Source: Daphnia pulex (Eukaryota; Arthropoda; Branchiopoda; Diplostraca; Daphniidae). Taken from it: DNA of 64,000 nt. A program made the position numbers and the translations under genes. The stretch's first letter is position 1. Each line of letters opens with the position of its first letter. Below, in pieces: positions 8,055 through 62,600 of this stretch. The notes below the pieces were generated by a model, which was not told the DNA's origin, searched no databases, and worked only from the letters and a program-made list of their open reading frames with translations. The stretch lies in NCBI RefSeq assembly GCF_021134715.1, contig NC_060026.1, positions 13,197,001 through 13,261,000 on the forward strand, in the 5' to 3' direction.

Positions 8055-10778
8055 ATGGATCTTAGCAACGGAGGTGTCCTGCAACTCCGCCAACTCTTCC
8101 AGGCTTGTGATCGACATCAAAGAGGCTACATCGATCGCCATGAATTCGGCCAACTTTGTGCCTCTTTCCAGATAGATCCGGCCGACGTGGACGTCATCTT
8201 TAATGACCTAGATCGGGACCGTGATCAACGTATTAGGTAAGTTTGTTCCGCTTGATTTGCATAGGGAAAAGAAGTGAAACTTTATTTTTTTTTTCTAAAT
8301 TTATTGGGCGGAAACAGTTTGGACGATTTCAGTCAAGGGTTTCGTGATTTCCTCGAGCCCGGAAGAGTTGCCGAAGAGGAGCGAGATGATAGGGTGAACG
8401 CTCCTCCTTCACGGCGTCGGATGGAGAGACAAGCGACTTTGAAAGCCTGGCGTGAATTCTCCGATAGACTGGGCTCCGACACGATCCGCCAGTTCCTGGC
8501 CCACAGCGCCGATCATTTGTACGGCCTCTACGAGGAGTTGCAGCAGAGCGAGGCTCCCGCCCAGCTCATCAGTCATTTCGAGAGTCTGATGGAAAGTCTC
8601 GTCTCGGATGCCCGTCAACTGGAACGTGAACGAGACAAATTCGACCAGGCCATCCGGCGTGAACGGGAGCAACATCAAGTGCACCTCAAGAATCTGGAAG
8701 AGGAGCTGGAAATTCAGGTGCAACGGGTGGCCCAGGTGGTCAAGAACGAGGCGGAAATCAAGTGCGAGGCGGAAAAACGGACGTTGCAGCACAGTCTCGA
8801 GTCGGAAATTGCCCAATTGCAGACTCACTTGCGACTCTTCCAAAAGGTTCGTCATTAGTTCATGTAGTATAATGTGCGTTATGAGAGAGACCCCCATGGT
8901 GAGTTTGTGTGTTTGTCGTCAGGTGGAAAATTGGTTGAATCGAGAACAACAGGAGGCGCAGACACGGGACCAGCAGGAGGCCGTCGAGCGGACATCCAGT
9001 GAGAACCGCCAATTGAAACTTTCACTAGTCGACGCTCAAACCACATTGGCTCTGCTGCAAACGGAATTGTCCCAGTTGAAATCCCAGTACTATGAAAAGG
9101 ACAGGCTGCTTTACAGGTGAAGAGAATGGGTTTCAATTTGAATTAATTGACTTCATTGAGTTGTTGACTGATTTGTTGAAATCTTGATTAGTGAAAAGGA
9201 GGCCATGTTGGATTTGGTCAGCCACCAAGATCACGTCCAGCGCCAATTGGAATTGCTCCAGTAAACAAAACAAAAAAGAATTTAGCCCCAAACTAATTAT
9301 GACCTATAAAGATATTTTTAAAATGTTTTCAAATTTCCTTTCCAGCGATGCTAATCGCCATCTTCAGGATACCAACGATTCTTTAAGAGCTCACGTAGAT
9401 TTCGCTACACTCCGACGATCGCCTGTTGGTAATTTCATCAAATAATTTTCAAATTTTTACCAAAAGTCAATTCAACGATTTGCATTGAAAGGATTTCTTT
9501 TTACCCGGCCGTCTTCCCGTCAAGATTCCGTGTCTGGCCATTGTTTGCCACATCCAATGGACGACGAAGTCATGCCGATAACTGGAGGTATAATATAATG
9601 ATAATTGAAAATGAAATCCCGTTACAAATTCCATCGTCATCGTCTAATTTTAGATAGCGGTCATAGTTCGCTTTTGCTGAGCGAACCAAATGAGCACATG
9701 CTGGAAAGGTCCGGCTCTTTCAGACGCAGTTTCAGGTCGCTACAACCTTCGGCCTCTTTACGTAACGAATTACACCTGGCGGCACCTTCACCCTGCCCTT
9801 CCCAAATCTTCAATCATTTCCAGCCCATCATCAAACTGAACAGCGACGTCAGCAGTTTCCGAGCGCTGGACGATTGGGAGCCGACAGGTCCAGCCGACCG
9901 GACGTTTAAAATCATTTTCGCCGGAGATTCTGCCGTCGGCAAATCCAGTTTCATATCTCGGCTTCACGATGGGGTCTTTATCAGTCACACAACAACGACA
10001 TTAGGTAACATTAGAAATATGGGATGTGGTCGTCTTATTCCAGTTACAACACGCCTAAGGCTTCCCTTGACTGTGTAATAAACGAGATTAATACTTGTTT
10101 AAACAACCCCAAAAAGGTGTCGACTACAAGGTGAAAACTATCCGAGTGGACGAACGTAACGTGGCGGTCCAGCTATGGGACACGGCAGGTAAAACGAGAT
10201 ATACATTTTTGATCCTTTGGATATTTTATTTTTTAATCATTTTATTTTTAAAAATACAGGCCAGGAAAGGTTTCGTTCCATAACTCAATCTTACTACCGC
10301 AAGGCTGACGGTATCATGTTGCTGTTTGACGTCAGCAACGAGCGGAGTTTTCTCAATATCCGGCACTGGGCGGATTGTCTTGCCGATTGTTTGAGTCGCG
10401 ATCATCTCAATTTACCTCTAGTCGTTTGCGGTACCAAAGCCGATTTACGTCCGTCGTCGGCGAACCAGGGACTTTCGTGCGTCCAGCTCATTCAAGCTCA
10501 ACGATTGGCCGCTCAACTGAAGGCTCAGTACATCGAAACGAGCGCCAAGACGGGCAGCAATTTGCTGGAAGCTCTCGTCATCCTGACAAGGTTCTCTCAC
10601 AATCTGTCAAGTTTCTTTAGCTCCTCCTCGTCGACATTTAATCCGATTTCCTTTCATTCTAAAAAAAAAAAAAAAAAATTACAGGCAGATGATGATCGTG
10701 CAAGATGATGAGGTGAAAACGTCCGGATTGCGGCTGACGGATCGGCGCAGTAAATTAAATTGTTGCAGCCGCAACTAG
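8055..10778 (+). CDS. RASEF: RASEF: EF-hand, coiled-coil and Rab GTPase protein
   Basis: Ten exons (8055-8236, 8318-8846, 8923-9116, 9192-9260, 9346-9428, 9492-9587, 9654-10004, 10117-10188, 10260-10590, 10685-10778) give 666 residues. An EF-hand pair lies at about residues 8-75; the first loop is poor in acidic residues, the second ([14 protein letters not shown]) is better. A long Gln/Glu-rich coiled coil runs over about 110-330. A linker rich in Ser follows. A Rab-type GTPase covers about 470-640: P loop [21 protein letters not shown] (switch I), WDTAGQERFRS (switch II), TKAD at the G4 site and ETSAK at G5. The end is CCSRN, a twin-cysteine Rab prenylation motif. Family role: atypical large Rab acting in membrane traffic and microtubule-linked transport. 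The G4 motif has Thr where most Rabs have Asn. The start at 8055 is the first ATG in the EF-hand frame; a TTG-started extension to 8013 is open but unsupported. Confidence 0.92.
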
Positions 10779-11857: not shown

Positions 11858-14800
11858 TTAGTCGTCCTCCTCCTCAAGCTCCTTGCGATCGCGATTTAAT
11901 CCGCGGATTTGAACGTACTGGACATTCTTGCTGGATTCACCACCCGCTTCGGGGCAAGCGCCGCTGTCTCCCGTTTTCGACTTTTTGATTTTCCAGCTGT
12001 CCCAGGGTCTTGGACAAGTCCTGGGCCGACTGAAAACCACTTCCATCTCTTCCAGCGTCCGGCCTTTGGTCTCCGGCAGGAGCCACCAAAATAGGAGCAG
12101 GCCAACGGTCGATAGAGCGCAGTAAAACATGAAAGCACCTGGAAATAAAATAAGGTGGGGGAAAAAGAAAACCAGCTGTTGATTTTCCAGTTGATGGGTT
12201 TTCTGAAATTGGTTTCGTTTCACCTTGACGCGTGAGGATTTCGGTGATTGTCAAAAAGGTCATGGAAACAAGGAAATTGAAGAACCAATTGGTCGACGTG
12301 GCGATGCTGTTGCAAGTGCTCCTGGCCCATAATGGATAAATTTCAGCGTTGATGGTCCACGGCATCGGTCCCATACCTTTTTTTTTAAAATCAAACCAAA
12401 TGGCATTTATGCACGACGACAGCTCACGTGTAATAAAGGTCACTGGTGCGACAGTCCAAACTACGTACCTGGAGCGAAAAAGAGGAGGTAAGTCATCAAT
12501 CCCAGAACGGTGATCCAGCCGTAGGTTGATGGGCACCATCCATAAGCGTAAATGAATCCCGAATGGCCAGCGGCATTGCTACTGCTAAGCCCAGCCTGCA
12601 TAAAAATCCCACCAAACAAAGATCAATGTCGCTCTCTCTCTCTCTCTCTGGGTCGTTCGATTCCGGAATAATAGGAAAATACGCGCGTCGGAAATAGAAA
12701 AAAAAGGAACGATGGATCGATATTACCGTGCTGGATAAATTGCTGCACGGTCCGTAGTCGGAGAGAAAGGTGGAATTCTCTTTGGACAGGAGACAGGATC
12801 CTTTGGAGACACCGCCGTTGGCCGGATCGTCCATGAAACAATATCCGCAATCAACGATGGAGTTGCACTCGTTGCATTCCCTGCACAAATCATCAAAGAA
12901 GAGATATCACATCGGAAATTGAATGGACGACAGTGGACTGGATCACTCACGAAGCGGAATTGCAGAGATCGTTCTTGTCGTTATAGAATTCCGTGACGGA
13001 GAAAGCGTTGGAATCGACAATCATGAATCCGACGGCGAGGAAGGCCAGTGAGAGGACGACGCCCAGGAGTGAGCCGAGCGTGAGCCGACGCCGGCCCACC
13101 TTCTCCACCAAGTAGATTCCGAGGAACGTGCAGATGAAATTGACGGACGCCACCAGGGCCGACAGCCAAATGGCTTTGGACGTGTCGTAGAATCCAGCCA
13201 TTTGAATGATGGTAGCGCTGTAGTACATGACCGTGTTGATTCCGGCAATTTGCTGGAACATTTGCAGGAGGCAGCCGAGGAAGAGGGCCCGCAGGACGGG
13301 CGGACTTTGAAGGATTTGGATGAGAACGTTGGCCGTTTGGCCTCTTTGACGTCGGTACTATTAACAGGGAGGGGGGAGGACGCACAAAATAATAAAACGT
13401 CAATAATTGAATCAACAAAACCGTTTATAATTGGGTGCCGCCTCCGCCGCTCCAGCTGCAGCCCCTTTCAACTAATCGGATTCCGAATTCTCATTTACCT
13501 CGAGTTCGCGCTCTGACTCGTCCACCGAGGCTTTAATAGCTTCCAGTTCGTCGTCAATGTTGTGGCACGGTCCGCGGATGCGCTGCAAAACTTTGCGGGC
13601 CTCATCCGGTCTGTGTGTTGAATTAAATATGAAGGAGGGAGAGAGAACAATACCAGAAAATAATTGTGTTATTTGTAAGGTTACTACAGAGAGAGAGAAC
13701 AATCTATTTGATGAGACGTCACGTACTTGCCATGACTAAAGAGCCAACGTGGACTCTCGGGCATCAGAAGGAATCCGACAAACTGGATCACGGCCGGAAT
13801 GGCGGCGATGCCCAGCATGTACCTAGATTAACGTTTCAATCAAATATAATATAAAAAAGACGAGCGTTTAGGTGTCGAACGATTCAATGGCGAAACACAA
13901 AAAAAAAACGAATAAAATAAGCCACGGATGTGCAGGAGAATATAAAAAGAAAAGCGGAATTGAAAAATAATAAGGTGTAAAAAAAAAAAGGCGGAAGTGA
14001 CTTACCTCTCGCCCCAACCTTTTTCACTTAATAACGATCGAAAAGATCAAACCAGTTACAATAATCGGATTTCCGCCTTCTATTCTTTTATTCTTTTGAT
14101 TGAATCAGGCAAATTTGTCGCTGAAGCGATTGAATTTCGTTATTGTAACGTCTATCCCGTCACATTTCGAACCAATCAATAGATTACACACATAATAATA
14201 TGAGCTGCTCTCGTATAGGGAGGAGGAAAAGCCTTTCTTCAATGGATCTAATGACACCCGATCAATCATCGTCGTCACACTGCACGGCGGCTCGTGGCCC
14301 CGCTACCCCCCCTCTATTACTCTACTCCTCCGGCCAATCTAAACCGGTCGATCACGTCAAAGTCTCACTAGAAGCTTTAACAATGGGGGCTGCTCCTCAT
14401 TCGAATAAAAGGAGGGCGCGCGTCGGTAGCAATTGACGTCATCTCACTTTTTTTCTTTCTTTTCTTTATGGATAAATAAATATTTTTTTCTCATCTTCCA
14501 TCTCGAAAAACATCAAAGAGAAAAAGAGGCAAAATGGAAAAAAAAAGTTCCCTGCCAGACAGTGGTGGAACGCAGAGCGCTGGGGGAATCGATCACCAGG
14601 TTGTATACAACATTCATACGGCTCTTTTTTCTTTTTTCTAGCTTTTTCCCCCTATTTTTCTTGGCGTTCTCCCCTTTAGCACTTTGGGCCAGCAGCAGCA
14701 GCTGCTACCGGGGGGGATGAAAATCAATAGGACGACACCACGACCGCACGACCACCCGCCAAGGAGTTAACACGAAGAAGATCGAAAGAAGAAGATTCGT

Positions 14801-17772
14801 GGGGGAACACAACACAAAAAGAAAAGCCCGAAAACTTTTTTTTCCTTTTGTCACTCTCGTAGTATTAAGTAGTAGTTGGGAGTAGTCAAAAAGTTCTTAT
14901 CAATTGATTTCAAAGGAGGCGGACATAAGTGAAAAGTAAATAAACTCACCTCCATCCATCAGGAATTGTACTGAGCGCTCCGCTGAAGACGGCGGCCATG
15001 GCCTGTCCGCCCGTAATGAACATGACGTTCATCGTCACCAACATTCCGCGCTGGGCGGAAGAGGCCGTTTCGGCTAAATACATTGGCACCACCATGCTGG
15101 CCAGACCTTATTTGTTTTGTTTTTTGTGCACAACAACAATGCAAACATAAAAGAAAAAATAATAAAACCAAAAATCAACTTAAAAAAAAGGTAAATAATA
15201 AAATTCATAAGAAATTAAAAGAAAATAATTCTGGGATAAGAGAACTCGGCGTCGCCATGTCATTATGGAGATGAGAGGAGAGCGGTGGACCGAATGGCAT
15301 GCACCACTGCTGAAAGCAGCAGCTCCAGAGAGAGAGAGAGAGGGACTCCAGGAGCTTTTTTGACAGAGTAGATCCAACCCAAAGGAGGAGGAGAAGTCGG
15401 GGATTTCGTGAGTGCATCGAGGGGAAAAAAGGAGGAGCTTTGCGAGTGTGTTGTGCGAACATAAGGAGAAGAAGAAGAAATCTACTGGCCCAACGGTAAA
15501 CATCAAAAGATGGACGAAAGGTATATAACAACGCACAAGACGGACTTAACGAGACACAACACACACAACGATCGATGTGAGGGGGACGGACGGACGGACG
15601 GACCTGCGGCTGGAGAAATTCAAGACGTCCAGCCATTGAAGACGGAATGGCCACTGATGAGAGTGATGAGCACCGCCGCCAGCAGCTTTGGTTGATGTTA
15701 GCAAGTCGGTTGTCATCATAAGGACGGGCTCTTTGCGTCCGGTGACGGGCGGGTAGAGTGTGAACGCCACGGCCGATGCCAAGGCTCCGCAGAAGCGGCC
15801 CATCGTTATCAAGACGCTCTGGAAGGCCACCAGGCGGCCGCGAAGATGTGCCGGACTGGTTTCGGCGATGTAGACGGACACGGTCGTCGACATCCAACCT
15901 GACCCACAACACACCCAACAATCACACACGGGCAGGGGCGGATCACCCAATCATCATCAAAGGCCAAAAAGTTCAACGAACCATCCTCCTCCAAAGTCCG
16001 GGACTACTACTCTCGATCCCTTCCGGGACCACACCTCGATCGATTGATCGTTTAACGATAAAAGGCACGTCGGGATTTCCAGCCCGCCCCCCCCCCCCTA
16101 GTTCCTATACAATTCCGCCCGGTTCGATTAAATGTCATAGGCCGACGCTCGCGATCCTGTGCAGTGATTTCCTGACCCTTTTTTCTTCTTCTCTGTGTTG
16201 TTCTCGAATGGGTAGGGTGGGAGAGAGACGGATCGATAGCCTCATCAGGACGACATTTCAAACAAGTCACGATCGTCTACCTACTCCAAACAGCAGTTGA
16301 AACTGGCGCCCTTTCTTCTGTGTCCAAAAGGTCGTGCCGTTTTTCGCCTTTCCCTACATCATAACGAGCAGCTCCCAACACACAGAGTGTACGAGTAATC
16401 GATACTATAAGGAGCAGCACCGGTAAATAATAAAAAAGATCCCAACCAAAAAAGAAATCTAAGCGCGGCAGACGAGGGGCTTGTTGATCCTGCGAAGAGA
16501 TGGGGGGCGCGCACAGTTCTCTAGTGGTGGATCATTTCGACACACAGGGCTGGATCCTGTAAATCTCCTTTTTATAATCTTGGAAAAATAACGTCCTACT
16601 GGGCGGCTCCCGGCAATCGACTTGGTAAAATCTGCAACTATTGAAATATTCACGAGAGATCCTTGACAAGGAGCCGAGAGAGAGAGAGAAAAAATTGATG
16701 TGAATCCCGCCCACTTTTTCGTGGGATCGATCCTTTTCGACCCGACTTCTTTACATAAAGAGACTTGATTTCGCTTGGCACTTCTGGCCCCTTCTGGCTC
16801 CTTTATGGACTATCTTTCCTACAGCTCCTATTCTCTGTTAATAACGAGAAAAAAAAGGAGCAGGAGGAGCGGGAGAGGCCGGGGATATAATACACGCCGA
16901 CCGTTGGCGGAATCCAATCTAATTTTCTTCATTACAGCCGCCCGCCGACATTCTCAGCCGCGCGATGAGACAAAAAAGGAGACGCAGCGGTGGTCGCCTG
17001 GATTTTCGTTCACCAGACACACACACAGATACAAACATGTGTGTTGCTACGGGTTACACGTTGCACGCTCGGATCAATGGAGAGGAGGAAATGATTGGGG
17101 ATTCATTTTGTTTTTTTGTTCTTTACCAATTCCGACGCCCACGATGATTCGTCCAGCTAGGAGCCCTTCTTTGCCATCGGCTGCTCCCATTACGATGGAA
17201 CCGGCCGTGAAGACGACGCTGGCAGCCAGGATGACAGGTTTACGACCCAGTCGATCTGTTACAATCCAGAAAGGGTTGATATATAATCAAATGACACATG
17301 TGATTCAAGTTTTGTAACAGAAAATATTCAATCGCCAATATTTACCCGAGAGATAGCCACCGAATAGCGAGAAAATCCAGGCGGCTGCAATGGTGGCCGA
17401 GACGATCGCCTCGTGCCATCCATTAGTCAATTCCATCTCTTTCCTTTTAAGTTAAGCAAAAGTTACGATTTTGAAGGAACGGGGCTTTTTATCGGAGCCA
17501 TAAAGAATGGATTTCACTTACCGAATTATGAGCATGGCACCCGAGACGACCCCAGTGTCGTAACCGAATAGGAATCCTCCGATGGCGCTAAAGAAAGCTA
17601 ATACGTAGACGAATTTCGACGACGACGAAGAGTAATCACTCGAATTGATCATGTCGTCATCGTCGCATGGACTTGTGGGCAATTGTTGCTGCCCAGTTGA
17701 CTTTAATGGAATCGTGGCGTCGTCCTCGTGGTCGTTTCTTTTCGAACCAACGTCGCCACTCTCACCCACCAT
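11858..17772 (-). CDS. Proton myo-inositol cotransporter-like sugar transporter (SLC2A13 family)
   Basis: Eleven coding exons on the minus strand: 17522-17772, 17346-17443, 17127-17255, 14950-15106, 13727-13822, 13499-13610, 12951-13357, 12727-12880, 12469-12595, 12224-12376, 11858-12138. All junctions keep phase. The protein has 12 predicted membrane segments of the major facilitator sugar porter type. Diagnostic motifs: [16 protein letters not shown] in helix 1, DRLGRKP after helix 2, PESPRWL after helix 6, [13 protein letters not shown] in helix 7, [12 protein letters not shown], and [10 protein letters not shown] after helix 12. A cysteine-rich outer loop ([15 protein letters not shown]) between helices 9 and 10 is typical of SLC2A13/HMIT. 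Family role: plasma-membrane H+/myo-inositol symport, or a related hexose transporter; substrate is not provable here. The ATG at 17772 sits just after a splice acceptor, so a noncoding first exon (about 17833-18000) is likely. An extra version of exon 4 lies at 15604-15898. Confidence 0.92.
14950..15106 (-). other. SLC2A13-like exon 4A (membrane segment variant A)
   Basis: This 157-base exon encodes [16 protein letters not shown] and [13 protein letters not shown] up to PDGW, helix 4 and the following loop. It keeps the GGQ motif whose glutamine binds sugar in this transporter class. Entry is at phase 1 and exit at phase 2. The acceptor (ATAAG) has a weak pyrimidine tract. Confidence 0.8.
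15604..15898 (-). other. SLC2A13-like alternative exon 4B
   Basis: A second homologous segment in the intron upstream of exon 4[20 protein letters not shown] then [17 protein letters not shown]. It starts after a TCAG acceptor in phase 1. With the donor CGCAG|GTCCGT at 15600-15604 it ends in phase 2, exactly as exon 4A does, so it can replace 4A without breaking the frame. It would encode 97 residues against 51, with a non-homologous stretch of about 46 residues after TLYPP. The sugar-binding glutamine of GGQ is Arg here (MGR). It may be a mutually exclusive exon or a decaying duplicate. Confidence 0.55.
15899..17126 (-). other. Intron between exons 3 and 4B of the transporter
   Basis: About 1.2 kb without recognised coding exons. 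It contains a poly-C run near 16088-16098 and a GA tract near 16677-16690. Open frames here on the plus strand have no family resemblance. Confidence 0.6.
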
Positions 17773-53671: not shown

Positions 53672-56600
53672 TCAAACGCGTTCGACATAGTTGCCCGGGA
53701 AGGTACCGAAGAGGCCGGTACGCTGGCTGGTGCCCACGTACCAACCGTCGTCGCACTTTTCCAGCACGCAGATCATGTCGCTTTCTTGCAGTTCAAGCTC
53801 GTCATCATTCTGCGGTGCATACGTGTAAAGCGCTCGGTATCTGAAATTTAAAAAAAAATCCATAATCAATCAACATCAATTGAAACTTTTAAAAAAGATG
53901 AGCTAAGTCTGAAATTTACAGGACGGGATCGGAGCGAGTGTCGACCATCAAACTGCTGGGTTTATTATACTGTGCTGGAGCTGTTCGGTACTGATGCTGA
54001 GATGTCGCATTCGCCGGGCTCATTTTCTGTTGCTAAAATCGAAAAATTATTTTATTACAAGGGCGGAAGAGAAAATAAGATTTCGAAATTCGCTCACCAT
54101 GGAAAAGTGCTGCGGCTGCTGAGTGCGTAATTGTTGGTAATTATGAGTTGAACGGAGAGATCCGTTAGTAATTAGAGCGGTACCGCTCGTTGTCGGGGTC
54201 TTGACATCTGAACGGAAGAAAATTTAATAAGTCCACATCTTTGGACGAAAAAATCTAAAATTAAATTTTACTTTGGTTGGAAGGAGATGAAGAACAAGGC
54301 TGGATAATGTCGACGTATGAAATGGGGAATATGCCACGGCGTTGACCGATGCGACCCTCTAGCCAGTGCTCGTCCACTTGTCTCGTGATGATTACCAATT
54401 CCCCTTTAACCAGAGACAATTCAATCGGCGTCTGGGCCACAAAATTGAATTTGACCCTGCCTTTGCCTTCGCTGGGTTTACGGTTTGTCAATCGTACGCC
54501 ATCGTAAGGTACGATCTGAATTAAAGACAAATTATTATCAGCAAACGTTGTCATGGTGATAAAAGTGTGTTGTTGTTCTACATACCTCGACGTAATTGAC
54601 AGGGAAGATGCCTACCATGGCATTGTGTTCTCCCTCGTACCAATTCTTATCAATCTGTCGCCGGATGAAGATAATATCTCCTTTTTGAAACGACAATTCC
54701 CTAAGTGAGAAAGTATACATAACAAAATGTGATCGAGAAGAGTTAAGCGTTTAGAAAATGTTGTACCGGGCGTTTTGAGCCACGAAGTTGTAGAGGCCGC
54801 GAGCTACTATTTTAGGCTCGGGAGTTCGGTCTCGTTGTGGCTGGTTTTGGCTGCCAGAACGGCCCATCGGCACCGGTTGATCATCCATAAAGTCATCATA
54901 ACGGTTCAACGGGATCGGGGATTTCATTAGCGGCCTATGAGAAATTTAAGAAAATACGTTCACGTAATTTCGCGCTAATTTTGATAAAATTGAGCGCAAC
55001 TTACGTAAAGTTATCCATGTGACGTCGAGACTCGATATCTTCCAGTTCTTGGATGTATTTCCGTCTACGCTCCTGTTCGTAAACGCGTCTCATGTGCTCC
55101 GCCTGCATCTGCCTCAATTCCTCCTCGTCGATTTCCGTCTGCAAACACAAAGTTCGAATTAACAACAAACTATGTAAAGATGCCCTCCTTAAAATGTTTA
55201 ATTTAAATTTAAAGGCTATGAACCTGCTGTTGACCGCTTTGCTGCAGGTTGCGGATAGGACTGCGGTAATGAATGGTCACCTCCGACTCGGCGAACCTGT
55301 GCGCTGCGCCTATTTGAGAAAAATGTCGTGGCGTTAACTATAAAAATGTACGTACGAAATGCCTTCCTCAACCAGCCAATTTCTACTTGTCGGCACAGAA
55401 ACTCGGAACAAATAATAACAATTACGTATATAGTAGAAAAACATAAAAGTGAGAAGAAGTTGCTACCTGGTGCATGCTGAGCATCGAGAACACCGTCACC
55501 ATCTTGCCCCACTAATGTCAACGACGACGAAATTCAAATAACAAATCAATGTAGAAAAACGGAAACAAAAAATTGAAGCGATAACGCCTTTTTTTGGAAA
55601 CAATTCAACTAACGAAATAATCATTTAGAAGCAGCAACGAAAGCGAATAAAAAGAACATAGCATTTATATAAGCTGCTGTTTCAATGGATATAATTCAAG
55701 TGCGGTTAGCTAATCTGTTTGGACGTCACGGTGGGTTATAGCGATTAGTTAATTATTTGCCATGCGATTTTCATTCTTTTTTTCATGCCAGGATGCAAAG
55801 GACCGATAGAGTGGTAACAGCATCCGCTGGATTCAATGTGCTACCCCGTTCTTTATAGATTCCGTCGCGGAAACCGTGATAAAAGTGTTTGTGCTTCTAG
55901 TGCTGGCCCGCTGGTGGATCGGTTCAATTTGCTTGTCCCAATTTTTTTGAAACTTTTGTGCAGTTTTCAACCTGCTTGATTGGTTGCTCGTGGCTTGCGG
56001 GGGCTGGTTAGGTGAGCCCACTCTGCTGGAAGGGGTGGGCGAGATGGAGACTGCATTCCGGCTCTCTGGCGAGGATACGTGGCGTATAAATCGTAAACGG
56101 AATGGATTCGGTTGGATCGACCCCCTGAACGCGGAGGTGGCGGAGTGTAGCGATAAATTGGCTGATGCATGGATGGATCGAAATTGCCGGAATGAGAGGT
56201 AGAAGAGGCCACTGGTTGGTAGTCTGCCTCTGGAGTGACATGTCCTACTGGAGAGCTGGATTGAGTTGCTGCCGGTTTACTGGCTGCCGTCATTTTGGCA
56301 CTGATGGATTCTTTAGGAACCGCTTTGGAATGGGCTGTTTCGGACTGCGTATTTCCAGGTGGATTTGGAGTCACATTAGACGCAGCAGCTGAAGTGGATA
56401 CCGGAATTGCCGGAAGCGGGCTGGACATGGATCGACGGCTTCGGATGGATCCTTCTGAAGTGGATTTAAAACTCATATCAGGACTAGCCACAGTAGTTTT
56501 GGTTGTTGAATGGGTGGCAGTAGTGGTCGTCTGGGTGTTGCTGGGTGGAAGAACGGAAGAAAGGGTAGAGGGAATGTCATTGTAGGATCCACCAGCGGCA

Positions 56601-59600
56601 GAAGAGTTGCGGGTGATAGGTCGGCTGATTCTTCCGCCGATAGTGTGTTGATGAGCCGTCGGATCGGCGGCCGTTTGTGCTTGACGGAGGGCCAGCCGTG
56701 CAGAGGAGAGTAAAGTAGGTTTGACACGAGTGAAATCCATTTTCTTACCCCCTGACCGACTTCCGGCGTCACTTCCATTTCGGCTTCCGGCTCTACTTAG
56801 CGACGAGAAATTGGGAAACGAGACCCGTTTGTTAGCGGCGGCCGCCAAACGACGACTCCAGCTGAAACTTCCGCTCGCTCCGCCATCCTGCAGTGACGGA
56901 GTCGAAGCCGAACCGAACTGACTCCGGAAGCGATTCCTCGGCTGCTCCTGCTCGTAGCGGCGCTTGATGAAACTAACGTCGCCCATCTCTTGCCCTTTGA
57001 TGACCGTTTTGTTGCGATTGAATTTTTCCGTCGCGCTCCAAAGCGGAAGCGAATCAGGAACGGAACGGCTGGATAGTTGCGGAGTTGCCGGCCTCGACTG
57101 CCTCTGAACTGGCTTCTGTTGTTGCGGTTGTTGTTGCTGCTGCTGTGATGGTTGGTCAACTCTTGGCGAACTGAAATATTGGCATTTCTTCACCACGTCG
57201 CCTTTCTTGACCAAATTGATGTAATGGCTTCCGCCTCCGGACACGCTTCCGGGAGATGATCTACGGCCGGAAGGACTCGGCGACGAGCTTTTGACTCGAT
57301 CCATCAGCTGATGAAGACGGAGATCGGTCATGGATCCGTAAGCAGAAGCGGATGATCCGGGCCGTTGGAGTGAAAGACTTTGCGACCTCTGCGGAACTAC
57401 GGCGCAGCGGGTCCGGCGACGGCCCACCAATGTTGATGCGGATCGGCGCAGGTCATTGACGCTCTGAGTAGTCCGAAAGGGAACGACGGCCAAGTCGCAA
57501 GGATCGCCAACCGAGTCAGCAATGACCTTCTCAAAGAAATCCACTTTCTTCTGGACGTCGCGATGGATGACCGTCTGGACGGACGAGTTTGAACTGTGAG
57601 AATCTTCTTCCAAGTTGGCGCGGATATTCAAACTGCTTGAGCGCTGCGGAACAGCCGGAGTCGGCGAAGGAGTTTTGCCAACGACGGCCGAGTCGGCCCA
57701 TTCTTGAACAGCTGATTCCACGTCGGCTTTATTCCGCCCGCGAGGTGTCAGCACCAGCAAATAATCTTGTTGGCTGCTGGCCGAGCTTCCGCGCGACGAG
57801 CTACGTGATTGATGAGTTCGATAAGGACCCGGCGAACTGGGCGACATCATCCGCGGTGAGCTGGCCAATTTTCTCGACATGTGCTGGCTCAACTGTTGAA
57901 CGTACTGGATCGCCGCTCTGGTGGATCGCGGCTGTTGATGCGGAGTGGCGGGCGGCTGGCCGGCGATGTAACGCTGTTTGACTTCCGCACCGAGCCGCAT
58001 AGATAAACTACGGCGTTCCGCTTCGCTGATATTTGGCTGCTTGGGTGCGGATGCCGACTGAGAGCGATGGACGGCACGTCCACTTCCGGCGATGGACAAC
58101 GCCTTCTGCGATTCCATTAGCCGATTGCGTCGCTGTTCCAGTCTGGCGAGCGTGCAATCACGACTGGATTCGGACACACTTCGAACGTAGAGTTTGGGGT
58201 TCAGCAACGATTCCGGAAGTTTCCGGGGCGGTCTTTGCGGAGAGACGACCGTCTCGTAACGGCTCGGCGGAGTATAGACGCGGGATAATTGCGATTTCAA
58301 AACGGCCATCTGCTTTCCCGTCAAACTGCTGCGCCTCTGGCTGGATCGACTGACTCGTCCAGTCGATACCGGAGATTCCGCTCGACTGCCATCCGGACAC
58401 TGGGCAAAGTTCCTTGGAAGTGATTGGGTCGAGTAACGTTTGGCTTCCGCCAATGTCTTGTATTTGTCCGTCAAGTGACGGACGGATTGTTCTTTGATGC
58501 GGAGTCCTGGATCGGCCCCACGTTGCCACTTGGGTGGCGGCGATGTGCCAAAGTAGCACTCGCCTTCTCTTTGTGCCGCCTGGATCCAGGTGGCCAAATT
58601 CCTCATCTCTTCCTGGGCCTTTTCTCGCTGCCTCAACCGGCGCCACAAATCAAAGTCGATGATGCCATCGGTGCTGGCCACCTGGTTCAGCTCGTCAGTC
58701 GGCACCAATTTTTCCAGCTCGTTGAGCCGTTCCAGGCTGCGATAAAGGGAGCGCAGCTGGGTGAAACGTTGAGTCTTGATGTATTCCGGACTGCCGGCGG
58801 TGGAGCGGGAGGAATAAAAATCTCCTTGCCCGTCTTCAGTTCTATTTTCAAGCGGGACAACAAAATGATAATGTTCCGAAAGTTGCTGCGGTTGTTGTTG
58901 TTGTTGTTCTTGCATCTGCTCTTGTTTTGATTCTGGCTGCTGTTGTTGTTGTTTTGGCGGCTGCTGGACCGGTGATTCAGCCTTCTGGCTTGCTGCACCA
59001 TCCGCTTTCTGAGATTCCGATTCCGGTTTGCCTTCCAGCTCGGCTAAAAGAATAGCCGCTGTCTGCTCATCGCAAATGAATTCAGGATCAGTGACGTCCA
59101 CGTCGGAGTTATTCTTGCCGTTAGATCCGTTGCCGTTGGAGCCATTTCCATTGCCGTTGCTTCCGGCTGGAAGTTTTAGCGCTTGGCGGATTTTTTCTGT
59201 GCTCGGAATCTCTCCAGAAATTCTAGCCACCAGATTTTTGGTGTCGCGGGCCAGTTTCTGGTATCTGGTCATTTTGGGCGTCTCTTCTTGAGCGACTGGC
59301 TCGTCCTGCATCCGCCGGAATTTCGATTGCGAAACCATTTGACGCGTATGGAGGTAGACGTTCAGGGCCGGCTCCGATTTACTGCCAGACGATTTCTTCT
59401 TAGCCGGACGGGATTGAAGTGGAGACAAGGTCGGAAAGGCCGGAAAAGACGGAAGCGCCGGACGGGACGGAACGCGTTGTTGTGTTGACCGCTGCTTTAA
59501 CTCCGGCGATTCCATCGCCGCTTTGATAGGCGGTGGAGGCGGAAGTGGCGGCTGCTCGACGTGCATATCCTCTACAGGAGGAGGCGGCAAAGGTTCCAGC

Positions 59601-62600
59601 TCTTGGGATTCCGGTTCAATCGGTTGGACGGGCTGAGGAACTGCGGTAATGTCGTCCGTCAACGGCGTTGCCGTTTCTTCCCGCTGAACAAATCCTCCGT
59701 CAACGGGGCTGGGCGCTGTTGGTTTCGGAGATTTCTTGGTGGCACCACTCGTTCCGTTTCCGGATTTAATCCGGCGCCAAGTTTTGCCCTTGGAAGAAGT
59801 CGAAGTCCCGATGGAAACTGTCGTTTTGGCGGTCGACGTTCCGGTGCTCTTTTGGTGGCGTTCTTCCGACGCGTTCGGGCTGCTGGTGGCGCTCGACTGT
59901 CGTTTGCTGCTTCCGCTGCGGAACATTTTGCAGCTTTGCAATCGGCTCAAAACGGCCGGAACGGAGAGGAATCGGTAGCGTCGTCTCTGCGTCGACGGCG
60001 GAGTCGGAGACTTGGATCTGAACCGGATGTAGCGCCAAGGATCTCTTTTGCGCTGTTTCTCGCTTCTGCCTATTCGACGATCGAACGGATCGGTCGACTC
60101 GTCTGATTCGAATTACCAGCGTATATGACGTTGGGCGAGGTAATGCAGCAAACACACAAAAGGAGATAAGCCAATCACAGGGAATGTTAACGCCAAATCA
60201 ATTTGTACAAAAAACAAAATGATAAAAGCTAATAGCAAAATCAAAACCCCAAAATGATATAAAACCAAATTAATTCTTCTACAATTTTGACTACACCTAC
60301 CGGTCAATCACAATCATCAATTGTGGTTAGCTGGATGCGTTTTTGTTTTTAATGGAATTTGGTCCCAATGAATGTTATAAAAGTTGCAATCAGTCCAAAT
60401 GCAATGATCGAAATTTCGGCTATAAAGCGGATGCAGCTTTAAGAAATGGATCGCCTTTTCTTACCTTGTGGTCGATCGGGCTGTTGTTTGCGGAGTCCGT
60501 GCAATGGCACCTCGCCTCCACGCTGGATGTCGCGGTACCAAAGACGCTGCTCTTGCGGATCGGTTGCCGGAGTTGTTGGTCCAGTACCCCCTTCGGCCGA
60601 ATCGGCCGGATAACGCCGTCGAAAGACTAGTTGAGAGTCACTCTCGTAACCGGATTCTTTCAAAGCACTGCCATTTAAAAATTTTTTTATCAAATTCATT
60701 AAAACAAATTAAATCCAATTCATTAAAAGAAATTTAATCAAATTCCAAGTCTTGATGGAAATTTTAGACAAATGTAACTTACAAATTCGTAAACGATTTG
60801 CTGGGGATGCTGATCTTGGGTGACTGAAATTTAACATTCAACATAATGTTATCGATTAATTTGATGGAATGTCGATGATAAAAAGTTACCTGTTTGACTG
60901 GCTGAGGCTGAGTGATAGAGGAACGGATTCCCGGCTCGTAATCTTCAATCCGACCGGGTTGATAACGATAGGATTCAGATTCTTGATTCCTGTACGTAAT
61001 TAATTCCAACGTGTTTTCAGTAAAACAACAGGAATGTCTAGATGGAATGAGTTAATTAATTGGTTTATAATTACGTTATTCGCGAAGGTGATCCGCCGTT
61101 AGATTCGGAATCGTTGTGGATGCGTTGACGTCTGCGATCCAAAGTTGCGTAACGACCGGCATCCGAATCGTAATCGTATCGGTTCTGATCCGGCTCCGAT
61201 TGGTAGCCTCCACCTCGTCCACGACCAGGTTTGTAGCGCACAGTGACGTAATCTCCTTGAGAAAATTAAAAACCAAATATCAAGAGTTTGAATGAATCAA
61301 CATGCCAATTAATTTATAATGAATTACCTGGACCTCCTGCCCTGTGTAAGGACTCGTACATACGCCGGTACCAGTGATGATGATCCTCTTCTCTTATGCC
61401 CTGGAGAAACGAATATCCAAATTACACAACAAATTCGCTAATGACGTCATATTAGATATGATAAACAAGTTCTTTGTCGACTATTAATAGACGTTGCACT
61501 TGAGAGCACTTCATTCCTTTTTACCTTCGTTTCATCGTCGATCAACATTTTTTAAACGTCTGTGAACCCGAGCGTGTGAATAAAACTGTTCTACATAATA
61601 ATCTCAAAATATTCAAAGCACCTACCATCGATCGATAAACTAAAGATAACAAAAGTCAAACAGCAGCCGATATGGGAACAAAAAAAAAATGTTCGTCAAG
61701 GTGACATTTGATAGCACTCGTTACACACAGCCTCTGTTACAAGTATAACCGCTCAAGGTTCAAATGGTTCCAAGTATCTCGTTAAGAGAGTGAACAATTC
61801 TGGCAACGACGACTACTACTACATGATTACAAACTAATTGGTACGTACACGAACGTGTGATGGCTGCGCTGTCTAAATAACAGACTATAATTAGTGGCCC
61901 GTACGGAGCGAAACGAATGGAGACACTAGACTAGTAGGTGGAACAAAGTCCGTAGTCAGTTGGAAGTTTTACCGAGCGCAAAGCGATGGGAACGCCTTCG
62001 TTGGAAACGGGTCCGACGCCGCTAAATTTGTTGGCCGTCAAATCGACAAACTTGCGCGTTTCTTGCGGCTGAGAAGAAGAAGAAGAAGAAGATGCCGCCG
62101 CTGGCTGTTGGCTATTTTCGTCGCCGTTGGCTTGTGAAACGCCTGGGCCAGATGAAGAAGTCGTCGAGGGCACGTTATACTCGCGCTGGATGCTGTACAC
62201 TGATGGAAGCAATCAACAAACAAATCAAGAAAAACGGGCCGGCAATTTCATAACAATCACTGATTTCTTTTTTTTTCCTATAAACTATTTCGGTGTTGTT
62301 TAAATATAAACAAACGGCCGGGGCCAGCAGACCTTGCTCGTATGGGCTACGGTACAGTTGCTGTTGGGGCGGAGGTGGTTGACCTAGGCGATTTCCGGAA
62401 CGTTCGCCTTGTTTGGGGCTGTCCAGGTAAGCGGCACCTTTCGGCAATTGTCCCTCTGATGATTGGAAAATCATCGAATAAGGTAAAAAAACCTCATCCA
62501 ATCAAAAATTCAAATTGCAAATGGGATGGACGGACCTCTGGCTTTCTGTAGGAGAGTGACGGTGGTGTTGGGCACCTTGGGCAGGTGACTGGTTGGCGTC

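What the first reader, a model, noticed from the sequence alone, without database searches (positions are those of the whole stretch)
14950..15898. Candidate mutually exclusive exons in an SLC2A13-type transporter
Seen: two homologous versions of the helix 4 exon lie in tandem, [15 protein letters not shown] (15604-15898) and [15 protein letters not shown] (14950-15106). Both enter at phase 1 and can leave at phase 2, so either fits between the same neighbours; using both would break the frame. Known: in sugar porters the glutamine in this helix contacts the sugar. Version A keeps GGQ, version B has MGR and a much longer outer loop. Inference: a splice switch may change substrate, coupling or function, or version B is a decaying duplicate.
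Basis: partly seen in the sequence, partly recalled or inferred. Interest (0 to 1): 0.7.

Follow-up and report, generated by a model that had tools for sequence, protein, structure and literature searches.

The report
Swappable exon pair in inositol-type transporter
A water-flea-like genome carries two interchangeable versions of one exon in a sugar/inositol-type transporter gene; choosing one or the other would swap a residue in the sugar-binding pocket, but no RNA evidence yet shows that both are used.

Summary
On the minus strand (17772-11858) lies an SLC2A13/HMIT-type gene with ten shared coding exons and two tandem homologous versions of one more: 4A (15898-15604, 295 nt, MGR, long loop) and 4B (15106-14950, 157 nt, GGQ). 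Either alone gives an open frame (700 or 654 aa); both or neither breaks it. 4A is more than chance: its coding score beats 564 of 564 intron windows, its first 41 residues match the sugar-porter family, its best donor is in phase, and it keeps 8 of 10 strongly conserved columns. The swapped residue is in TM5, not helix 4, and aligns with XylE Q175, a known sugar-contact site. Best reading: a mutually exclusive exon pair; 4B makes the ordinary transporter, 4A a variant with Arg in the pocket and a 46-residue longer outer loop. Against normal transport by 4A: 0 of 68 bacterial relatives have Arg there, and a Trp present in 68 of 68 is displaced. No transcripts or sister species were reachable, so recent decay of 4A is not excluded.

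The parts
17522..17772 (-). coding exon 1 (ATG, TM1 with GYD)
17346..17443 (-). coding exon 2
17127..17255 (-). coding exon 3 (DRLGRK motif to start of TM4), ends phase 1; weak donor TTG|GTAAAG
15604..15898 (-). alternative exon 4A (MGR form; isoform 46 aa longer, excess in the TM5-TM6 outer loop); donor CAG|GTCCGT
14950..15106 (-). alternative exon 4B (GGQ form, canonical); strong donor GAG|GTGAGT, acceptor with poor pyrimidine tract
13727..13822 (-). coding exon 5 (TM6, PESPRWL), enters phase 2
13499..13610 (-). coding exon 6
12951..13357 (-). coding exon 7 (about TM7-TM9)
12727..12880 (-). coding exon 8 (cysteine-rich outer loop 9)
12469..12595 (-). coding exon 9
12224..12376 (-). coding exon 10
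11858..12138 (-). coding exon 11 with stop codon

Best explanation
Exons 4A and 4B are a mutually exclusive pair made by an old tandem exon duplication inside an SLC2A13/HMIT-type sugar porter. Shown: they are homologous, in phase, open and coding-like, and only one-at-a-time inclusion keeps the frame. Inferred: exon 3 is joined either to 4A or to 4B. A 4A-to-4B join would need 4A's weak donor and 4B's poor acceptor, and double or null products carry early stops and should be removed by nonsense-mediated decay. 4B gives the ordinary transporter. 4A gives a probably minor, tissue- or stage-specific form with Arg in place of the TM5 pocket Gln (XylE Q175 position) and a longer outer loop, with changed substrate preference or coupling, or little transport of its own.
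For: Frame logic. Both isoforms pass the sugar porter model TIGR00879: 349.5 (A) and 378.5 bits (B), cut-off 237.8. Exon 4A alone passes Pfam Sugar_tr, 32.7 bits against 22.3, over its residues 1-41. Coding score of 4A exceeds 564 of 564 overlapping intron windows; in frame 0.28, other frames -0.25 and -0.08; its loop part alone exceeds 940 of 940 length-matched windows. Of 21 GT sites in the open stretch (exon length 128-348) the donor at 15604 scores best (1.26, next -0.89) and is in phase. 4A keeps 8 of 10 columns conserved in at least 75% of 68 relatives, 4B 7 of 10. Identity of A and B by codon position 19, 24, 13 of 45; positions 1+2 against 3, one-sided p=0.027. Introns round the pair 1228, 497, 1127 nt; the other eight 70-141 nt.
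Against: No RNA reads, peptides or sister-species sequences. 4A's donor lacks the consensus at +3 and +4. The family match of 4A stops at residue 41 of 99, and at the looser 50% level 4A keeps 12 of 23 columns, 4B 14. 4A lost a Pro that 56 of 68 relatives and 4B keep, and the Trp that is present in 68 of 68 just before TM6 is displaced by 15 residues as aligned. Arg at the pocket column in 0 of 68 relatives. Intron-intron RNA pairing not clearly beyond local composition. At 0.1 neutral substitutions per site 4A would still be stop-free in 44% of 600 runs.
Confidence: 0.62

Rival explanations
1. 4A is a recently silenced duplicate: an alternative exon for most of its life, now no longer spliced in.
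For: Weak donor; displaced invariant Trp and long loop, perhaps intron sequence taken in after an original donor was lost; Arg at that site in 0 of 68 relatives; a stop-free frame survives mild neutral drift (44% of 600 runs at 0.1 substitutions per site).
Against: Both ends still in phase, GT-AG intact, no stop; the loop part is still coding-like in its frame above 940 of 940 intron windows.
Confidence: 0.25
2. 4A is a switch-off (poison) or dominant-negative exon: its inclusion, alone or with 4B, lowers transporter output instead of making a second transporter.
For: 4A plus 4B gives a stop after 306 residues; 4A alone puts a charge in the pocket.
Against: A poison exon needs no protein-level constraint, yet 4A shows codon-position bias and conserved columns; 4A alone gives a full open frame.
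Confidence: 0.1
3. 4A is an alternative last exon that reads on to the in-frame stop just after 15549 and ends the transcript there.
For: The frame stays open to 15549.
Against: No AATAAA or ATTAAA in the 497 nt between 4A and 4B, and an in-phase donor exists.
Confidence: 0.03

Closest known systems
Mutually exclusive exon pairs of human carriers (SLC25A3; SLC39A14/ZIP14 exons 4A/4B)
   Same: Alternative exons of a membrane transporter, one used at a time. [quoted passage not shown] a passage of PMC5748785 tells of splicing between ZIP14 exons 4A and 4B in tumours.
   Different: Those have RNA evidence (as those passages tell) and other transporter folds (recalled). Here the two versions differ by 46 residues and the swapped helix carries a substrate-contact residue.
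Daphnia pulex INDY transporter, exons 11 and 12 (gene8790)
   Same: A mutually exclusive event in a transporter gene of a water flea from RNA-seq; 129 genes with such events in that study (passages of PMC7318467).
   Different: Another family (recalled); the gene described here is not named in the passages seen, and supplementary tables could not be read.
SLC2A13 / HMIT proton-myo-inositol cotransporter
   Same: Sugar porter fold (TIGR00879, Pfam Sugar_tr), PESPRWL, and a loop with 8 cysteines between TM9 and TM10 that I recall as typical of HMIT.
   Different: My searches listed no report of an alternative TM5 exon of HMIT (lists of 15, 31 and 54 were capped).
XylE Q175 and its GLUT counterpart isoleucine
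   Same: Q of 4B and R of 4A align with position 175 of the XylE chain. Q175 bonds the C6-OH of glucose and is Ile in GLUTs (passages of PMC13095657); Q175I with L297F lets XylE carry glucose (passages of PMC13095657 and PMC8784342).
   Different: There a laboratory change to Ile, effective only in the double mutant; here a splice choice would place Arg.

Membership tests
Mutually exclusive exon pair | tandem homologous exons | tested here: met
   BLASTP 18 of 47 identical, E 5e-7; one profile hits both
Mutually exclusive exon pair | same entry and exit phase; one at a time keeps the frame | tested here: met
Mutually exclusive exon pair | compatible GT-AG splice sites | tested here: met
   4A donor 1.26, the ten other donors of the gene -0.0 to 7.47 on a recalled human-like table
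Mutually exclusive exon pair | about the same length (WebScipio default 20 aa difference, leeway for loops; passages of PMC3228551) | tested here: inconclusive
   Difference 46 aa, beyond that default; the excess lies between TM5 and TM6
Mutually exclusive exon pair | transcripts hold one or the other, not both or none | not testable with these tools
   no RNA data held
Sugar porter family (TIGR00879 / Pfam Sugar_tr) | score above the curated cut-offs | tested here: met
   both isoforms
SLC2A13 / HMIT | orthology to known HMIT proteins by tree | not tested
   no animal HMIT sequence was fetched; the assignment rests on recalled likeness and on loop 9
SLC2A13 / HMIT | H+-coupled myo-inositol transport | not testable with these tools
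   needs an assay
Docking-site/selector RNA control of exclusive splicing | long-range intron pairing beyond composition | tested here: inconclusive
   Stronger than 12 of 12 whole-intron shuffles for each of three intron pairs, but 4 of 20, 16 of 20 and 1 of 12 local shuffles are as strong; no comparative data

The most novel reading that the evidence does not exclude
A splice switch that swaps the specificity residue of a sugar porter: one gene makes an inositol/sugar symporter (Gln) and, by exon choice, a form with Arg in the pocket and an extended outer loop that carries anionic substrates or acts as a non-transporting sensor.
Probability: 0.15. Interest if true: 0.72.

Novelty: new member of a known kind. 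Interest (0 to 1): 0.45.

Why it matters
If both forms are made, a natural isoform pair would test what the TM5 pocket residue does in a sugar/inositol porter, a point studied by mutation in XylE. It would also show tandem exon duplication diversifying a substrate site instead of a whole gene. A search for exclusive exons that allows only 20 residues of length difference (default in PMC3228551) would miss this pair.

Tried and rejected
Control by intron base-pairing: the best duplexes beat 12 of 12 whole-intron shuffles for each of three intron pairs, but 4 of 20, 16 of 20 and 1 of 12 local-composition shuffles do as well, so I do not count it as evidence; the longest inverted repeats of the region are mostly A/T-rich (25 of 42 shown). 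A third copy of the exon: none below E = 1 in six frames of the window. A second 4A-like exon elsewhere in the genome: only the exon itself below E = 1 (three candidates scored). Intronic polyadenylation after 4A: no signal in 497 nt. Relatives of 4A in viral contigs: none. The first scan of prokaryote genome contigs with isoform B found nothing; a second with alignment A1 found six bacterial relatives. Structure prediction was not attempted, because a spliced protein is not a letter-for-letter reading of the window as that tool asks. Paper searches gave no report of this exon pair in what they listed: 16 of 16 listed; 0 found; 11 of 11; 15 of 1,997; 12 of 134; 3 of 3; 15 of 39. Only listings and abstract openings were seen there; passages were read in PMC8784342, PMC3228551, PMC7318467, PMC13095657, PMC5748785, PMC5740500 and PMC2717050.

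Full report
What is there. The window is part of a 133.2 Mb genome in 13 contigs. That fits a Daphnia (the abstract opening of a D. obtusa paper listed gives 129.4 Mb on 12 chromosomes), but the species is my inference. On the minus strand a gene runs from ATG 17772 to stop 11858. I built it by hand from GT-AG sites. Its protein is a sugar porter: with exon 4B, TIGR00879 378.5 bits, cut-off 237.8, and Pfam Sugar_tr 361.3 bits, cut-off 22.3. Between TM9 and TM10 there is a stretch of about 98 residues with 8 Cys, which I recall as typical of HMIT. No SLC2A13 chain is named among the solved structures shown (55 of 55, 60 of 70), and orthology was not tested by tree. No close second copy of the gene was found: outside this locus the best matches are 35% identical over part of the query (38 candidates scored).

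The pair. Exons 4A (15898-15604, 295 nt) and 4B (15106-14950, 157 nt) lie in tandem between exon 3 (ends 17127, phase 1) and exon 5 (starts 13822, phase 2). 4A alone gives 700 aa, 4B alone 654 aa; both together stop after 306 residues and neither stops after 170. The finding's coordinates and phases are exact. Its helix number is not: the exon covers the end of TM4, the 4-5 loop and TM5. Its version labels are crossed between sentences.

More than chance. In six frames of the window the two exons are the only segments below E = 1 with a profile of this region built from 68 bacterial relatives (3.9e-12 and 3e-11, next 1.4). 4A against 4B gives 18 of 47 identical, E 5e-7. Exon 4A alone passes Pfam's cut-off, but over its residues 1-41 only; exon 4B matches over its whole length. 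The coding score of 4A in its frame (0.28) lies above 564 of 564 intron windows (maximum -0.06) and well above its other two frames. Its loop part alone (0.16) lies above 940 of 940 length-matched windows (maximum 0.09), its other frames at -0.06. The windows overlap, so they are not independent, and exon GC is higher than intron GC; the contrast between frames is the safer sign. Of 21 GT sites at exon lengths 128 to 348, before the first in-frame stop, the donor at 15604 scores 1.26 and the next best -0.89; it is one of six in the needed phase. The donor table is recalled (human-like frequencies). On it the gene's ten other donors range from -0.0 to 7.47.

Selection. Identity between 4A and 4B over 45 codons is 19, 24 and 13 at positions 1, 2 and 3. 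Positions 1+2 exceed position 3 (43 of 90 against 13 of 45, one-sided Fisher p=0.027). This is modest, but a copy drifting freely since the duplication should show no such pattern. Of ten columns at least 75% one residue in the relatives, 4A keeps 8 and 4B 7; at 85% it is 6 and 5 of 6; at 60% 11 and 11 of 15; at 50% 12 and 14 of 23. 4A keeps the Pro (61 of 68) and the Arg (33 of 68, Lys in 10) of the 4-5 loop that 4B has lost, and lost a Pro (56 of 68) that 4B keeps. The relatives were fetched with a 4B query, which leans towards 4B: 76 bacterial loci, of which 74 matched and 68 gave distinct proteins of 300 aa or more. Searches had matches in 41 of 118 and 39 of 119 genomes and gave at most 30 loci each. 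In a simple simulation from today's 4A, a neutral copy stays stop-free in 44% of 600 runs at 0.1 substitutions per site, 7% at 0.5 and 3% at 1.0. So an old dead copy is unlikely; a recently dead one is not excluded.

What the swap does. In the phmmer alignments the Gln of 4B and the Arg of 4A both fall on position 175 of the XylE chain, without gaps up to there. Passages of PMC13095657 say that the TM5 residue Q175 bonds the C6-OH of glucose and is Ile in GLUTs. Passages there and in PMC8784342 say that Q175I together with L297F lets XylE transport glucose; Q175I alone does not. In the 68 relatives the column is Ile 44, Phe 7, Met 5, Ala 5, Leu 3, Tyr 2, Gln 1, Pro 1, Arg 0. In three paralogous stretches of the same genome it is Phe, Ile and Thr. 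The XylE Q168 position (a sugar contact as I recall) is Val in 4B and Ser in 4A, Gln in 55 of 68. Both versions keep a hydrophobic TM5 (best 19-residue mean 1.59 for A, 1.49 for B). Against normal transport by the 4A form: the Trp just before TM6 is present in 68 of 68 and the next residue is Arg in 62. In 4A the Trp aligned there stands 15 residues before that Arg, though a second Trp stands nearer. The stretch from the pocket residue to the aligned Trp is 47 residues, against 16 in 4B and 13-34 in relatives. The last part of 4A may be intron sequence taken in later.

Splicing. The introns round the pair are 1228, 497 and 1127 nt, the eight others 70-141 nt. 4B has the gene's strongest donor (7.47) and its poorest pyrimidine tract (0.25; the other ten acceptors 0.45-0.85). 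4A has a middling acceptor (0.50) and a weak donor (1.26); exon 3's donor is also weak. Joining 4A to 4B would thus pair a weak donor with the worst acceptor, and the product would be out of frame. I take this as the likely cause of exclusion; it is inference. At 497 nt between them, simple crowding of splice sites is unlikely (recalled principle). Long-range RNA pairing beats whole-intron shuffles but not clearly shuffles that keep local composition. No polyadenylation signal lies between 4A and 4B.

Known kind. Exclusive exons in transporters are known in human SLC25A3 and SLC39A14 (passages of PMC5740500) and in the D. pulex INDY gene, in a study with 129 genes showing such events (passages of PMC7318467). 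Whether this gene is among the 129 I could not see. My searches listed no report of this pair (the last three with capped lists), in a library that lacks most subscription papers. A search that allows 20 residues of length difference, the default described in PMC3228551 (passages), would miss it.

Verdict. A mutually exclusive pair is the best explanation (0.62), with a recently silenced exon 4A the main rival (0.25). It is a candidate new member of a known kind, with the added interest that the swapped residue sits at a known specificity site.

Noticed in passing
10193-10705 (+): A Rab-like small GTPase reading ([31 protein letters not shown]; likeness recalled, not searched) lies tail to tail with the transporter gene, about 1.1 kb beyond its stop.
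   Followed up: no
15584-15603 (-): Five GTCC units in a row begin exactly at the exon 4A donor, so the donor is the first unit of a small repeat.
   Followed up: partly
55970-60112 (-): A 1381-residue open stretch, not examined.
   Followed up: no
15107-15127 (-): The canonical exon 4B follows an A-rich stretch with few pyrimidines next to its AG, the poorest of the gene's 11 acceptors.
   Followed up: partly
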